A DNA stretch of 24,761 nt from a virus. Location: positions 1-24,761 of the IMG/VR virus record IMGVR_UViG_3300022911_000015. One strand, 5' to 3'. The translations under genes were made by a program, and so were the position numbers. Of this stretch, positions 44 to 23,453 are shown piece after piece (the first letter of the stretch is position 1; each line of letters begins with the position of its first letter). The notes under the pieces are model-generated. The model did no database searches. It worked only from the letters and a program-made list of their open reading frames with translations, and had not been told where the DNA came from.

Positions 44-65
44 ATTGTAGCGCAGATATCTGCGC
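44..65 (-). promoter_or_regulatory. Operator palindrome plus -10 box, copy 1
   Basis: GCGCAGATATCTGCGC at 50-65 is a perfect 16-bp palindrome. Reading leftward it is followed at once by TACAAT (49-44), which matches the sigma-70 -10 consensus at five of six positions, then 7 nt and an ATG. An identical palindrome occurs at 8225-8240. The upstream -35 region is poor. A regulator bound here would therefore cover the spacer, consistent with repression or with activation from the spacer. The binding protein is not known. Confidence 0.6.
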
Positions 66-6506: not shown

Positions 6507-7333
<827 letters not shown>

Positions 7334-7363
7334 GTGTTCTCCTCCTCGCGATTGTTGGTTTCG

Positions 7364-8130: not shown

Positions 8131-8206
8131 CGGCTACGCAAGCATTCAGCACCTCAGAACGAGACGATTTTGCGGGCCCGCGGGGGCGATTTGCAACGCT
8201 CGCCGA

Positions 8207-8219
8207 TTTCACGTGAAAC
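8207..8219. promoter_or_regulatory. parS-like palindrome
   Basis: TTTCACGTGAAA (8207-8218) is a perfect 12-bp palindrome, and with the next base matches 13 consecutive positions of the widespread chromosomal parS core (TTTCACGTGAAAC). The outermost bases of the 16-bp parS consensus are not conserved. It lies 6 bp from the 16-bp palindrome in the control region. No ParB or ParA gene is in the window. It could be bound by host ParB, by a phage ParB encoded elsewhere, or by an unrelated regulator using the same core. Confidence 0.55.
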
Positions 8220-8224
8220 GCCGT

Positions 8225-8250
8225 GCGCAGATATCTGCGCGTGTTAGATT
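8225..8250 (+). promoter_or_regulatory. Operator palindrome plus extended -10, copy 2
   Basis: GCGCAGATATCTGCGC at 8225-8240 is identical to the copy at 50-65. Downstream, TGtTAGATT (8242-8250) reads as an extended -10 element ending 6 nt before the ATG at 8257, so transcription would start at or next to the ATG. GGAG lies only 2 nt before the ATG, too close for a normal Shine-Dalgarno. The -35 region is weak. This is the probable promoter of the ribbon-helix-helix/lipoprotein pair. Confidence 0.6.
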
Positions 8251-8256
8251 GGAGCG

Positions 8257-8448
8257 ATGAAAAAGAAACGCCCCTCCGGCCCCTCCGGCCGCAACGCGCA
8301 AGCCGCGCGCATTCTCCGCGGCTCGCCCGAATTTTGGGCGCTCCTCGATCGCGCTGTCGAGCAAGCAAACGAGACCTATTCCGACTGGGCGCGCCGCACG
8401 CTTGCGGCCGCTGCTGAACTCGAACTCAGGAAAGCCCCGACGAAATGA
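8257..8448 (+). CDS. Small ribbon-helix-helix-like protein
   Basis: The product has 63 residues. A basic N-terminus (MKKKRPSGPSGRNAQAAR) is followed by SPEFWALLDRAVEQANETYSDWARRTLAAAAELEL, which resembles the two-helix part of small ribbon-helix-helix or antitoxin-like DNA-binding proteins (compare patterns of the type VDRAAE...SAWIRRAL). The strand that would contact DNA is not obvious, so the fold is tentative. It is the only rightward cistron directly under the palindrome-controlled promoter. Its stop overlaps the lipoprotein start (ATGA at 8445-8448), so the two are coupled. An autoregulatory repressor is a reasonable hypothesis. Confidence 0.55.
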   Translation: MKKKRPSGPSGRNAQAARILRGSPEFWALLDRAVEQANETYSDWARRTLAAAAELELRKAPTK

Positions 8449-9047
8449 CCCCTAATCAACGCGGCCGCGTGGCCGTAGTCGCAAGCATGAGATTGCTACT
8501 AATCGCGATACTCGCTCTTACTGCGCTTGCATGCGGCTCCGCTGTCGACGATGCGCCTACCGCCGCGGGCGGTAGCTCGGGCTCCGCGCCCATGGCGGAG
8601 GGCGGAACCGCGGGCGCGGAGCTCCCCGCGGCGGGCGCGGCAGGCGAACTCACGGCAGAGGGCGGGGCAGCGGGCGCCATGCCTATGGGCAGCGCGGGCA
8701 CGCCTACGGTGTTGGACGGGGCGGGCGCGGGCGGGACGGGCGGCGACAGCTCGGAAGCGGCGGGCGCTCCTAATGCGGCGGGAAGCGCGGGCGCGGAGCC
8801 GGCCCCCGGCTCGCTATGGGCAGCGTGTACCGAGGCCCCCCCGTGCAATGCGGGTTTGGTATGCGGCGAATTCGTTAGGCGCGCGGGCGACCCGGCCGGG
8901 AATCGGGTTTGCACATTCCCTTGCTTGCATGGCGACGCGCCTATGTCCGAGCTGGCCGCAAGATGCGCCGCTGCCGGCGGAGTGTGCGGCCCGGGCTACT
9001 ATGCATTTTGCGTGCCGCATCAACCGATCCGAACCGAAGACCCCTGA
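8445..9047 (+). CDS. Exported cysteine-rich lipoprotein
   Basis: The product has 200 residues. A signal peptide MRLLLIAILALTALAC ends at C30, a lipobox-type cysteine followed by Gly-Ser rather than Asp, compatible with outer-membrane delivery. Residues about 32-123 are a Gly/Ala/Ser-rich low-complexity linker. The C-terminal domain (about 124-195) has eight cysteines (WAAC, PPC, LVC, RVC, FPC, ARC, GVC, AFC), enough for four disulfides. This layout is typical of myxobacterial surface lipoproteins. The ATG at 8445 gives ATGA coupling, but an inner ATG at 8487 would start right at the signal peptide and is also possible. In a phage, such a protein is a candidate for superinfection exclusion or host-surface conversion; that role is inferred. 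Confidence 0.75.
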   Translation: MTPNQRGRVAVVASMRLLLIAILALTALACGSAVDDAPTAAGGSSGSAPMAEGGTAGAELPAAGAAGELTAEGGAAGAMPMGSAGTPTVLDGAGAGGTGGDSSEAAGAPNAAGSAGAEPAPGSLWAACTEAPPCNAGLVCGEFVRRAGDPAGNRVCTFPCLHGDAPMSELAARCAAAGGVCGPGYYAFCVPHQPIRTEDP

Positions 9048-9055
9048 AATTGGGA

Positions 9056-9085
9056 GGGCCCCCAAGTCTTGCGACCGAGGGGCCC
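9056..9085 (+). terminator. Hairpin A after the lipoprotein gene
   Basis: GGGCCCC (9056-9062) pairs with GGGGCCC (9079-9085). A 3x3 internal loop separates this stem from GTC/GAC closing a TTGC tetraloop. It begins 9 nt after the lipoprotein stop. No U-tract follows, so simple intrinsic termination is uncertain. A diverged copy lies at 9201-9230 on the other strand. Confidence 0.6.
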
Positions 9086-9137
9086 ATAATGGGCGCGTGC
9101 GGCAGGGGGGGACAGACCGCTACGCCCGAGGGGGAAC

Positions 9138-9178
9138 CTAGCACCGGGAAATAATGGCGGTCAATATTTCCCGGCTAG
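9138..9178. other. Long hairpin/inverted repeat in the middle of the convergent intergenic region
   Basis: CCGGGAAATA (9144-9153) and TATTTCCCGG (9165-9174) are perfect 10-bp arms around an 11-nt loop. CTAG (9138-9141) and CTAG (9175-9178) extend the stem past a 2-nt bulge. It lies between hairpins A and B and near the 3' end of the large terminase gene. It could be a bidirectional terminator, a protein-binding site or a packaging-related site; none is proven. Confidence 0.55.
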
Positions 9179-9200
9179 ACTAAGCTCGGCAGCGCGTAAG

Positions 9201-9230
9201 CAGCCCCCTGGTCGCAAGACTCGGGGGCTG
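9201..9230 (-). terminator. Hairpin B after the large terminase gene
   Basis: CAGCCCCC (9201-9208) pairs with GGGGGCTG (9223-9230), and an inner GTC/GAC pair closes a tetraloop. It lies 2 nt after the large terminase stop. Read on the terminase sense strand, it aligns base for base with hairpin A read on the lipoprotein sense strand (23 of 30 positions identical). Outer pairs change in a compensatory way. It probably ends or stabilises the terminase transcript. Confidence 0.65.
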
Positions 9231-9232
9231 TT

Positions 9233-10690
9233 CTATTTGCGCGCGGTGAATCCCGCCGCCCCTAGTTTGCGCGCCCGAGTCTCGGCGCGTTTTCGCATTT
9301 CAGCCCGCGTGCGCTTGGCCTCCTGTTTGTGCCATTCGACCGTGCCGGCTTTCGGGGCCTCGATCTCCGGCTGATACCAAGCCCGCGCCGCGCGCACGCT
9401 GTACAGGAGCGAATCGCACGAATGATTCTCGAACCGCTGATCTTCCGCAGCTCGGCCCGGTCCCCATTGCAGTAAGCACATTTCGTCGATTAGGTGCGAA
9501 CACTCGCGGGTCACGATTCGGATCGTGCCGCTCCGGAGTTCTCCCGCGACGATCTCCTGATACGCGCGCTTTTTGGTTTTCTCGGCAGCGATGCATCCGA
9601 TCCCGTAACGCTGCCGCATTTCTTCCGCGTAGCCTTTCCCCATGCCGCCTTCGTCCACGACGATTTGGAGGCCCGGCCCGAACTCAGCGCGGAAGGCCTC
9701 GACGTGCCCCGCCACGGCGGCAGGAATGAGGCCCGAGCGTTTCCACGATCGGAGGATCCAAATCTCCGGGAAGCCCGTCCGCGTGGCGGCAATGGTGAAC
9801 GCCGTTGCATCGATAAAGCCGATATCCACCCCGAGGATATATCGAAGCCCGGCGGGCACCTCCGCCGCGGTCACGCCGTTCAGGTTTGCGCTAAACGGAT
9901 AGACTAGCGCGCCCTCGTCCCGCACCCATTCGCCGAGATACTCCCGCCGATACGTCGCGCTGTGTTTGTCGAGCCCATAGGTCTCGCAAAAAAGTTTAAC
10001 CTCCGCCTCCGCGTTCGGAATGTGCGGGTTATCGAAAATGGTCCAATGATGCGTTGGCCATTGCGGCGAACCGTCGCCCGTCGAAGCCTCGTAGAATAAC
10101 CCCGCGGGGATAGGGCTCGGGGTCCCGGCTAGGAGCAAGTGTCCGGCTTTGTCGATTAGCGCCGGCTCGAACGCATCGGTTACGAGCTCGCGCAAAAACG
10201 ATCCATATTCTTGCGATTCGTCGATCGCGACCCGCTTGTATTTCGAGCCGCGAAACTTCCCCACCTCGGACGCATCCTTGCAGCCCGCGAGCCAAATGGA
10301 ATGGCGCGTCACGCCTACGACTAGCAAAAGCTGCCCGTCGATTTCGCGGAGCTTCAGCCGAAGCTCTGGATATTTGCTCGCAAAAAAGTCGATCGCCGGT
10401 TGCAAGATGCGCCGCGCGTCGCCCTTGCTGCGCGCGACGTATACGCTTAGCCCGTTTGCATCGGACAGCGCGCCATCGATTAGCCAGGCTAGGATACCGT
10501 GCGACTTGCCGGCACGACGCGAACAGATGGCGACTTTGCGGCGGCTCTGGTCGAGAACAAACGCCCGTTGCTTCGGGTGCAAGTCGGTCAGGAAACGGCG
10601 CGCGGCTTCGATATCGCGCGCGGTCCTAACGCGGCGTTCGAGCTCCCCGCGGAGCTCGGGCGGCAGCTTCGCGAATTGCTCGGGGGTCAC
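9233..10690 (-). CDS. terL: Large terminase subunit (DNA-packaging ATPase/nuclease)
   Basis: The 485-residue protein starts from GTG at 10690, chosen because it forms a GTGA overlap with the upstream stop and gives the natural N-terminus VTPEQFAKLPPELRGELE. A longer ATG form (10768) would run through the neighbour. The ATPase part has Walker A SRRAGKS (about 57-63), Walker B VAIDE (about 154-158) and LLLAGTPSP as the likely coupling motif. The RNase H-like nuclease part has VDIG (D about 289), VVDEGG (D about 346) and HSCDSLLYS (D about 426). It translocates DNA into the procapsid through the portal and cuts concatemers. It is unusual in lying on the opposite strand from portal and capsid. 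Confidence 0.93.
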   Translation of the reverse strand: MTPEQFAKLPPELRGELERRVRTARDIEAARRFLTDLHPKQRAFVLDQSRRKVAICSRRAGKSHGILAWLIDGALSDANGLSVYVARSKGDARRILQPAIDFFASKYPELRLKLREIDGQLLLVVGVTRHSIWLAGCKDASEVGKFRGSKYKRVAIDESQEYGSFLRELVTDAFEPALIDKAGHLLLAGTPSPIPAGLFYEASTGDGSPQWPTHHWTIFDNPHIPNAEAEVKLFCETYGLDKHSATYRREYLGEWVRDEGALVYPFSANLNGVTAAEVPAGLRYILGVDIGFIDATAFTIAATRTGFPEIWILRSWKRSGLIPAAVAGHVEAFRAEFGPGLQIVVDEGGMGKGYAEEMRQRYGIGCIAAEKTKKRAYQEIVAGELRSGTIRIVTRECSHLIDEMCLLQWGPGRAAEDQRFENHSCDSLLYSVRAARAWYQPEIEAPKAGTVEWHKQEAKRTRAEMRKRAETRARKLGAAGFTARK

Positions 10691-10962
10691 TCCGCGGTAT
10701 CGTTCGCGGGCTCGGGCTCGCGTCCGATCTCCCACGTGGCATAGCGAATCATATCGTCCGGGTGCCAATGCCGCGCGCCCGTATTCCGGGCAATCACGAG
10801 GAATCCTCCATCGTAGCGATCGATAACGGCGGACTCGAGGTTATAGGCCGCCTCCCCGTCCTCGCCAGGCATTTTCAGGGTCAATGCGATCCAGCGCAAG
10901 CGCGCCGGGCTCGCGTCCAGGTTCGGGGATTTCTTGGCCGTCGATTTCAATAACTCGGGCAT
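10687..10962 (-). CDS. Small protein of the terminase operon, overlapping terS
   Basis: The product has 91 residues. The ATG at 10962 has an excellent Shine-Dalgarno (GCAGGAG, 8 nt away), although the first 122 bp overlap the end of the small terminase gene in another frame. A later ATG at 10872 would reduce the overlap to 32 bp but lacks a ribosome-binding site. The core ESAVIDRYDGGFLVIARNTGARHWHPDDMIRYATWEI looks like a compact beta-rich fold. No family is recognised. Its position between the terminase subunits suggests a packaging-related accessory role, by context only. Confidence 0.6.
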   Translation of the reverse strand: MPELLKSTAKKSPNLDASPARLRWIALTLKMPGEDGEAAYNLESAVIDRYDGGFLVIARNTGARHWHPDDMIRYATWEIGREPEPANDTAE

Positions 10963-11452
10963 TGCTGTTCGCTCCTGCTGACTGACTGAGGCGGTGCACC
11001 TCGTTAAGTAAATCCGCGTCGCTCATTTGCTGATAGCGGATGACGACTTCGCTATTTGTGCCGCTCAAGCCGAGGCAATCCGCGAGATGCTTTGCTGCCG
11101 CGAGCGCGGTTCGGTGGTCGGGCTTGCGCAGCGTGTGAACCTGGCCCGCCATATCTAGGGCCTCCTCGGTCCGCTCCTCCGCGTCCCGACCAATGCGGGC
11201 GATCCGTTCGAGGACAGCGAGCTTCGCCTCGTCTTGCCCCCAACTCATGCGCAGCAAACGCGAAGCTTCGGCCGCGCATTTCTGCGCGTGCGTTAGCGAG
11301 CAGTCCAGGCGGGCCGCGAGCTCGCGCACGCTGCGAAACGGACGCCACAAACCCTCCGCCATCTCCATCGCGATGGCTTCGACGATTTTATCCTTTTGCA
11401 AGGCGGAGCCCTCCGCCGCGCCCATGCCTGGCCTCATGAGCCGCCGAGCCAT
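10841..11452 (-). CDS. terS: Small terminase subunit (putative)
   Basis: The product has 203 residues. A helix-turn-helix at about 41-68 (SVRELAARLDCSLTHAQKCAAEASRLL) is followed by a long helical region suitable for ring oligomerisation (about 75-130) and a C-terminal tail (ALDRIDPENAWRGRGG) that could contact the large subunit. Small terminases recognise the packaging site and stimulate the large-subunit ATPase. The size and the position just upstream of terL support the call, although sequence similarity alone is weak. The ATG at 11452 lies 3 nt after the stop of the membrane microprotein. The 3' end overlaps the next gene by 122 bp. Confidence 0.75.
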   Translation of the reverse strand: MARRLMRPGMGAAEGSALQKDKIVEAIAMEMAEGLWRPFRSVRELAARLDCSLTHAQKCAAEASRLLRMSWGQDEAKLAVLERIARIGRDAEERTEEALDMAGQVHTLRKPDHRTALAAAKHLADCLGLSGTNSEVVIRYQQMSDADLLNEVHRLSQSAGANSNARVIEIDGQEIPEPGREPGALALDRIDPENAWRGRGGGL

Positions 11453-11455
11453 TTG

Positions 11456-11545
11456 CTACTGGCGCCCCGGTTTCGCCATGTACACGCCCACTAGCGCGCC
11501 CACGAACGCGGACAGAAACACGAGCACATGCCCGACCGCGTCCAT
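11456..11545 (-). CDS. 29-residue single-span membrane peptide
   Basis: A short frame exactly fills the gap between groES and terS. It starts at ATG 11545, which shares its A with the groES stop (TGATG), and ends at TAG 11456-11458, 3 nt before the terS start. The peptide begins MDAVGHVLVFLS, continues as an uninterrupted hydrophobic Gly/Ala/Val helix with GxxxG spacing, and ends MAKPGRQ. That is one transmembrane span with a basic C-terminus. Codon fit and precise spacing argue for a real gene. Its role is unknown; similar tiny spans occur in phages as holin- or lysis-associated peptides or as chaperone/membrane adaptors. Confidence 0.55.
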   Translation of the reverse strand: MDAVGHVLVFLSAFVGALVGVYMAKPGRQ

Positions 11546-21464: not shown

Positions 21465-23453
21465 ATGGCTGGATTTGAAACCCCCGAGCAGAAGGCAGCA
21501 CGCGAAGCGCGCGAGGCAATGCAGCAGCAGACGGGCGGCTATGTCGCGCCCGGTAACGCTCCCCTCCCTCCGGGGTACGACCGATCGTCCATGAGCCCGG
21601 AAGCGCAGCAAGCGCGGCGGGAACAGGGGCGGGCGCAAGCCGCCGCAAACGTGGCGACGGGTAACCAACTCCCGGGCAAATTCTCGACGTGGGCCGGGCA
21701 AGCAAAGCAAGATATTGTCCATTCGGAGTTGAGCCGCGGCGAGGCGGACGCGAAGCGGCAACGCGATTTCGGATTTGGCACGGGGAACAATGCCGAGACC
21801 GCCGGCATGATTGGCGGCGTTCAGCAAACCGCCGATAAGTTTTCAACGGTGTTCGGGGATATGGCGGGCACGGCGGGCGCGCGCTCGGACGCGGCAAACG
21901 CCCGCGGCACGGGCATGTATGCCGGCAATATGGGCCAGTACCAGACGGGCCTAGCGAACGCGCAGCAATCGCGCGGCATGCAAACGGGCGCGTATGACGC
22001 GCTGATGGGCATGGCGAACGCGGGCCCGGGCCCGAGCGCGGCTCAGGCGCAACTCACGCAAGCGACCGATGCCAATACTCAGAACGCGCTAGCGATGGCA
22101 CGCTCGGGGCGCGGCATGGGCGGAGGTGCGGCCGCCATGCGCCAGGCAATCGGACAGAACGCCGCAACGCAGCAGCAAGCCGGCGGGCAGATGGCGCAAC
22201 TCCGCGCGAACGAAAACACGGCGTTCCAAGCTCAGCGATTGCAAGCGATGCAAGGGGCCGGGGACGTTGGCTATAAGACCGCGGCGACCGATCAAAATTA
22301 TGGCCAGCTCGGTCTACAGGGCGCGCAATACGAAACCGATACCCTGCTTAAGGGAACCGATCTGAACGACCGCACGGCGGCGGGATGGGCGGACCGCCAA
22401 CTCACCGGAGCGGAGCGCGCGCATGGGGCGGAAGTCACGGGCCACAACCAAGTGCAAAACCTCAACGCGGCCGCGCTCGCCGCGCGCCAGGCGGAGGACG
22501 ACGCCGCTTTCCGCAAGGCAGCGCTAGAGCGTGGCGAAGTCGCGGCAGCGGAGCAACGCCAGGCGAATCTAGTGGACGCGACGATTAGCGGCGGGGCTAC
22601 GGTCGCGGGCGCGGTTTCCGACGAACGCGGGAAAATGAATATCGAACCGCTCGGCGGTATCGCCTCGACTCGCCCGGGCGAACCGCTTTCGGGCAACGGG
22701 GTCAAGCCGATCCAGATCCAGCCGAAGCTCCCGCCGCCTCCTCCGCCTCCGGGCCCGAGCGAGGAGGAGGAGGCGGCCGCTAAGGGCGGCAAGATTGGCG
22801 GGACCGTGGGCAAGGTCGGAGGCGCGGTAATCGGCGGCGTGGTCGGGGGTCCGATCGGCGCGCTCGCGGGCTCCGCGATCGGTGGGCTCGCGGGCAAACA
22901 CCTCGGGAAAATCTTTTCCGATGTGCGCAGCAAAACGAATATTGAACCGCTGTCGAGCTCGACTGACGAGGCCGATCCATATGCGCAACTCGGCTCGCTC
23001 GCGGAGAAGTACGGAGCGGCGGGCGTGGCCTCGACCCCCAAGGCAGTAAAGGAATACACCGCGCGCAAGCCGGGCGAGTCTCATTCGATTTTGAGCAAGG
23101 GCGACGCCTTGCTGGCCGACTCCGCGCGCAACGCGCCCCCCTCGGCCTACGACTACAAAGAACCGGACGCCCCCGGGGCGAAACCGGGGCGCCAAGTCGG
23201 GCCCATGGCGCAAGACTTGGCGGCACATCCCGTCACGCGCGGGGCAGTCGAGACCGATCCGAACACCGGCCGGCTAATGGTCGACGGCGGGCGCGCGGCG
23301 CTTGCTGGCCTCGCGCAGAATCACTCGCAGCAAAACCAACTCGACGCGCTAGGGGGCGAGATTGCTCGACTCGAGGACTTGCTAAAGCGCAAGCCGGGAG
23401 ACTCGAGGGCGACCGGTTTCAAGCGCGACCAGACCGCGGGGGGACTCAACTAG
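21465..23453 (+). CDS. Ejection-type protein with glycine zipper and Peptidase_S74 chaperone domain
   Basis: The product has 662 residues. Residues 1-370 are Gln/Ala/Gly-rich and helical. SDERGKMNIEPL lies at 385-396. A polyproline run and acidic stretch lead to a glycine zipper at about 441-482 (IGGVVGGPIGALAGS...). A second SDVRSKTNIEPL is at 485-496, then an ICA-like domain containing YDYKEPDAPG, GRQVGPMAQDL and a terminal GGEIARLEDLLKR coiled coil. S74 domains chaperone trimerisation and usually cleave themselves at the Ser of SDxRxK. The glycine zipper suggests membrane insertion during DNA ejection. The signature occurs twice, exactly 100 residues apart. A fibre is possible but less likely given the membrane-like zipper. 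Confidence 0.75.
   Translation: MAGFETPEQKAAREAREAMQQQTGGYVAPGNAPLPPGYDRSSMSPEAQQARREQGRAQAAANVATGNQLPGKFSTWAGQAKQDIVHSELSRGEADAKRQRDFGFGTGNNAETAGMIGGVQQTADKFSTVFGDMAGTAGARSDAANARGTGMYAGNMGQYQTGLANAQQSRGMQTGAYDALMGMANAGPGPSAAQAQLTQATDANTQNALAMARSGRGMGGGAAAMRQAIGQNAATQQQAGGQMAQLRANENTAFQAQRLQAMQGAGDVGYKTAATDQNYGQLGLQGAQYETDTLLKGTDLNDRTAAGWADRQLTGAERAHGAEVTGHNQVQNLNAAALAARQAEDDAAFRKAALERGEVAAAEQRQANLVDATISGGATVAGAVSDERGKMNIEPLGGIASTRPGEPLSGNGVKPIQIQPKLPPPPPPPGPSEEEEAAAKGGKIGGTVGKVGGAVIGGVVGGPIGALAGSAIGGLAGKHLGKIFSDVRSKTNIEPLSSSTDEADPYAQLGSLAEKYGAAGVASTPKAVKEYTARKPGESHSILSKGDALLADSARNAPPSAYDYKEPDAPGAKPGRQVGPMAQDLAAHPVTRGAVETDPNTGRLMVDGGRAALAGLAQNHSQQNQLDALGGEIARLEDLLKRKPGDSRATGFKRDQTAGGLN

What the first reader, a model, noticed from the sequence alone, without database searches (positions are those of the whole stretch)
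9056..9230. Two diverged copies of a 30-nt hairpin with compensatory changes
Hairpin A (9056-9085, sense strand of the lipoprotein gene) and hairpin B (9230-9201, sense strand of terL) align over 30 nt with 23 identities, including an exact 12-nt core AGTCTTGCGACC. The first and second base pairs change from G-C and G-C to C-G and A-T, preserving pairing. Each begins 2-9 nt after a stop codon in the direction of its own gene. This covariation indicates a selected RNA structure, yet neither has a U-tract, so it is not a textbook terminator.
Basis: seen in the sequence. Interest (0 to 1): 0.65.

Follow-up and report, generated by a model that had tools for sequence, protein, structure and literature searches.

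The report
Paired convergent phage transcription terminators

Summary
Two inverted hairpins (A 9056-9085, B 9201-9230) share 23 of 30 nt and an exact 12-nt core, more than shuffled sequence gives, and two outer pairs change on both sides. On the opposite strands both fold better: a GCAA tetraloop closed by GGUC/GACU, -24.7 and -26.3 kcal/mol against -19.8 and -22.1. On those strands they are followed by partial U-tracts. The same core occurs in terminator-like hairpins of unrelated viruses and bacteria, nearly always with the T-rich tail on the GCAA strand. A syntenic relative has a hairpin with different sequence and a T-rich tail at the place of B. Best reading: a pair of convergent Rho-independent terminators, probably an inverted duplicate, B stopping the lipoprotein operon before terL and A stopping terL before the lipoprotein gene. 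A's tail is weak, and nothing here measures termination. No copies were found in the close relatives. Ordinary; low interest.

The parts
9201..9230 (+). Hairpin B: CAGCCCCC-U-GGUC-GCAA-GACU-C-GGGGGCUG, proposed terminator of the + strand operon (8257-9047)
   Evidence: -26.3 kcal/mol with flanks, z -5.98; highest terminator score of 897 hairpins on both strands of the window; model match 54.2 bits, by construction since it is in the model
9231..9240 (+). Partial U-tract of B, TTCTATTTGC; it overlaps the antisense of the terL stop codon and last lysine codon
   Evidence: sequence; equivalent T-rich stretch TGCTTTCATTTGCGC in relative G004
9056..9085 (-). Hairpin A: GGGCCCC-UC-GGUC-GCAA-GACU-U-GGGGGCCC, proposed terminator of terL
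   Evidence: -24.7 kcal/mol with flanks, z -4.22; rank 19 of 897; 46.3 bits, by construction
9046..9055 (-). Weak tail of A, TCCCAATTTC; it reaches the lipoprotein stop codon
   Evidence: sequence
9144..9174 (.). A/T-containing dyad CCGGGAAATAATGgcggtCAATATTTCCCGG between the two hairpins, function unknown
   Evidence: not found in the relatives or in viral contigs
8445..9047 (+). Small lipoprotein gene (lipobox LTALAC), second gene of a two-gene + strand operon
   Evidence: ORF and translation
8257..8448 (+). 63-aa protein, first gene of the operon; homologues in relatives G002 and G004
9233..10768 (-). terL, large terminase subunit
   Evidence: PHROG 2, E 1.4e-37; Pfam Terminase_6N

Best explanation
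A(-) and B(+) are two Rho-independent (intrinsic) transcription terminators in the gap between convergent transcription units, related to each other probably by inverted duplication. RNA polymerase transcribing the + strand operon (63-aa gene and lipoprotein) passes A in its weakly folding orientation, makes B as a GC-rich stem with a GCAA tetraloop, and releases at UUCUAUUU just before entering terL in antisense. Polymerase coming from terL passes B in its weak orientation, makes A, and stops just before entering the lipoprotein gene in antisense. The outer base pairs are free to drift as long as they pair, which gives the two-sided changes. Shown: folds, strand asymmetry, scores, gene layout, the same tip in other terminator-like hairpins, a hairpin at the same place in one relative. 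Inferred: that termination occurs, its efficiency, and the duplication.
For: Opposite strands fold 4-5 kcal/mol better with a GNRA loop. Hairpins with the same core but unrelated flanks have a T-rich tail on the GCAA strand: canonical T7-tailed terminator-like hairpins in viruses L010 and L016, intergenic copies in Phycisphaerales, three of them right after tRNA-Met; T counts favour the GCAA strand 19:1 with 3 ties once the window's own copies are removed (one search prints 20:1 because one of its rows is B). Syntenic relative G004 (terL 83% identical) has a hairpin with a different stem and loop beside the terL stop, with its T-rich tail on the same strand as B's, rank 6 of 970 on that strand. 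GCAA-tipped terminator-like hairpins are common in viral contigs. Two-sided substitutions in terminator stems are documented, more often at the stem ends (PMC5381666).
Against: A's tail has only 4 T in 10 and its score is negative; it may be a poor terminator. B's T-run is partly dictated by the terL Lys-stop codons. terL relatives G002 and L003 have the convergent gene abutting terL with no hairpin there, so terminators are not obligatory at this place. The scoring formula was calibrated on E. coli. The long transcripts are predicted to pair A with B instead, though the local hairpin would form first. No transcript data.
Confidence: 0.78

Rival explanations
1. Only B(+) is a working terminator; A is its decayed or captured inverted copy with no role of its own, and terL transcription ends by Rho or runs on antisense into the lipoprotein gene. 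(This is a weaker form of the best explanation, so the confidences overlap.)
For: B has the top score (7.8) and A a poor one (-21.8) because of its tail.
Against: A keeps a fully paired outer stem with two two-sided changes relative to B and lies exactly at the end of the lipoprotein gene.
Confidence: 0.35
2. Each hairpin works on the strand the reader chose, as a 3' UTR structure directly after its own gene (mRNA stabiliser, RNase stop, or Rho-terminated end trimmed back to the stem).
For: Each begins 2-8 nt after the stop codon of its own gene; -19.8 and -22.1 kcal/mol is still stable.
Against: The other strand is more stable in both copies and carries the T-rich flanks; the same tip elsewhere mostly faces the GCAA way.
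Confidence: 0.12
3. The inverted repeats are the ends of a small mobile element (MITE-like, about 175 bp) inserted between terL and the lipoprotein gene.
For: 26-nt arms, 88% complementary, 119 nt apart; relatives G002 and L003 have no such segment there.
Against: No flanking target duplication seen by eye; no second copy in the window or in relatives; no match of the segment in phage or plasmid collections beyond chance level; the core occurs singly in other records.
Confidence: 0.04
4. The similarity of A and B is convergence: two independent terminators that happen to use one favoured tip. (About the origin of the pair, not its function; compatible with the best explanation.)
For: GCAA tips are common in terminator-like hairpins; G006 and Phycisphaerales genomes hold several hairpins with similar tips.
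Against: The full 12-nt tip is rare: 13 viral stretches hold GGTCGCAAGACTNGGGG, mostly not hairpins, and no other within-contig hairpin pair shares its tip.
Confidence: 0.2

Closest known systems
Rho-independent (intrinsic) terminators between convergent genes
   Same: GC-rich stem, short stable loop, T-rich tail (B), placement between tail-to-tail genes; one terminator per strand without overlap is a recognised class (PMC5381666, PMC1852404)
   Different: Tails are imperfect, that of A weak; the two terminators look like inverted copies of one another
Bidirectional terminators
   Same: Near-palindromic hairpins between convergent genes
   Different: Each hairpin scores well on one strand only; neither is flanked by A-tract and T-tract on both sides
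Uptake-sequence terminators of Neisseria and Pasteurellaceae (PMC1852404)
   Same: A repeated short sequence forms terminator hairpins
   Different: There two inverted copies make one hairpin and occur in hundreds; here each copy is a hairpin by itself and only two exist in the record

Membership tests
Intrinsic (Rho-independent) terminator | Stable GC-rich hairpin, better than shuffled sequence | tested here: met
   B(+) z -5.98, A(-) z -4.22
Intrinsic (Rho-independent) terminator | U-rich tract directly after the stem | tested here: inconclusive
   B 6 T of 10, A 4 T of 10, local T 19%; best score in window for B, weak for A
Intrinsic (Rho-independent) terminator | Lies downstream of a transcription unit on the same strand | tested here: met
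   B(+) 153 nt after the lipoprotein stop; A(-) 147 nt after the terL stop
Intrinsic (Rho-independent) terminator | RNA 3' ends form there without Rho | not testable with these tools
   needs Term-seq or in vitro transcription
Bidirectional terminator | Same hairpin meets terminator criteria on both strands | tested here: not met
   B(-) rank 43, A(+) rank 193
Rfam structured RNA family | Covariance model match above gathering score | tested here: not met
   0 matches in the window
MITE or insertion element | Terminal inverted repeats plus target site duplication and further copies | tested here: not met
   Inverted repeats present; no second unit; no duplication seen by eye

The most novel reading that the evidence does not exclude
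The inverted pair is a regulated switch: in either transcript A and B can pair with each other over 26 nt (predicted in both full-length folds), so the two states, local terminator or long-range stem around the 9144-9174 dyad, would couple lipoprotein and terL expression.
Probability: 0.04. Interest if true: 0.5.

Novelty: new member of a known kind. Interest (0 to 1): 0.12.

Why it matters
It is mostly a correction: reading a near-palindromic hairpin on the wrong strand hides its GNRA loop, its G-U pair and its U-tract and makes an ordinary terminator look strange. It also gives the transcription layout of this uncultured phage group: a small conserved operon facing terL, with terminators that come and go between relatives.

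Tried and rejected
Rfam: no match. Further copies in the record or in terL relatives: none with the model. Central dyad in viral contigs: none. terL in 294 Planctomycetota genomes: only weak matches, 24-41% identity, so the recurrence of the tip in Phycisphaerales does not show the host. The alignment A2 was chosen by the core, so the conservation of the core in it, and much of its covariation score, is by construction. A first hairpin-pair null missed the window pair because it scanned one strand only; one search replaces it.

Full report
What is there. The record is a 24,761-base virus fragment. terL (9233-10768, minus strand) converges on a two-gene plus-strand operon: a 63-aa protein (8257-8448) and a small lipoprotein (8445-9047). 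The 185 nt between the two stop codons hold hairpin A next to the lipoprotein gene and hairpin B next to terL, as inverted copies, with a third dyad between them.

Chance. Shuffling 8900-9400 with dinucleotides kept never gave an inverted match of 23/30 (0 of 200), though a 12-nt exact inverted match alone is not rare in such GC-rich DNA (14 of 500). Among 127 four-loop hairpins in 23 viral sequences, the window pair is the only one of 1103 within-contig pairs with the same 12-nt tip. The copies are therefore probably related, most simply by inverted duplication; convergence on a favoured tip remains possible.

Which strand. The core is almost its own reverse complement, so the strand must be tested. 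On the other strands it gives GGUC-GCAA-GACU with a G-U pair, a 1x1 mismatch and a GNRA tetraloop (-24.7 and -26.3). The T-rich flanks are also on those strands.

The same tip elsewhere. Pattern scans that did not ask for a T-tract found the tip in hairpins of two unrelated viruses with seven T after the stem (L010, L016), in further viruses (L041, L042) and in bacteria, above all Phycisphaerales, where three copies follow tRNA-Met directly. In 23 such hairpins outside the window the 12 nt after the stem hold more T on the GCAA strand in 19, fewer in 1, equal in 3 (after removing the window's own B copy from its 24 rows). These records are not independent of each other, so no probability is attached. 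The Stenotrophomonas phage B2 hairpin is a counterexample with the longer T-run on the other strand.

Relatives. Four viral contigs carry terL at 73-83% identity. None has the tip. In G002 and L003 a convergent gene abuts terL without a hairpin. In G004, syntenic over most of the window, a hairpin of different stem and loop lies beside the terL stop, with its T-rich tail on the same strand as B's; the local gene order differs there, since another minus-strand gene follows terL. A hairpin kept in place but not in sequence fits a terminator. Part of the T-run is the antisense of the terL Lys-stop codons, which limits the weight of this.

Mechanism. B(+) would end the operon's transcript before antisense terL; A(-) would end the terL transcript before the antisense lipoprotein gene. 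B is well supported, A moderately because of its poor tail. Two-sided changes at outer stem pairs are what is known of terminators (PMC5381666), and non-overlapping terminators between convergent genes are a recognised class (PMC5381666, PMC1852404). In full-length folds A pairs with B; since hairpins form as they are made, this is left as an unlikely regulatory option.

Verdict. A real feature, read on the wrong strand; a new member of a known kind, of low interest.

Noticed in passing
window 8205-8220: GATTTCACGTGAAACG, with the exact core TTTCACGTGAAA of the bacterial ParB site parS (3 mismatches to TGTTTCACGTGAAACA, consensus from memory), in the divergent promoter region; identical in relative G004 at 7320-7335. 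A phage-borne parS-like site would be worth a look.
   Followed up: partly
window 50-65 and 8225-8240: Perfect palindrome GCGCAGATATCTGCGC twice in the window; G004 has GCGCGGATATCTGCGC twice (7342, 30930), one copy also beside the parS-like site. Probably an operator.
   Followed up: partly
L036 2996, 4582, 7765; L054 1515, 2937; L096 2296, 3996, 4719, 10222; L097 12337 and others: Phycisphaerales genomes carry several same-strand copies of a hairpin AACCCCCGGGTCGCAAGACTCGGGGGTTGTCGTTTT within a few kb, some after tRNA-Met, with a further conserved stretch upstream (CGCCCNCTATTCG) in most copies. Clustered terminators or a repeat family; unexplained.
   Followed up: partly
window 9144-9174: Dyad CCGGGAAATAATGgcggtCAATATTTCCCGG between the two terminators, with an A/T-rich stem in a 63% GC genome; no relative found.
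   Followed up: partly
window 11460-11477 and 23177-23194: Exact 18-nt inverted repeat TGGCGCCCCGGTTTCGCC, one copy just upstream of the gene 10841-11452(-), the other inside the gene 21465-23453(+).
   Followed up: no
L098 1009-1045 (Stenotrophomonas phage B2 41877-41913): Terminator-like hairpin GGCCCCTAAGTCTTGCGATTTAGGGGCC between converging genes near the small terminase gene, not annotated in the record.
   Followed up: partly
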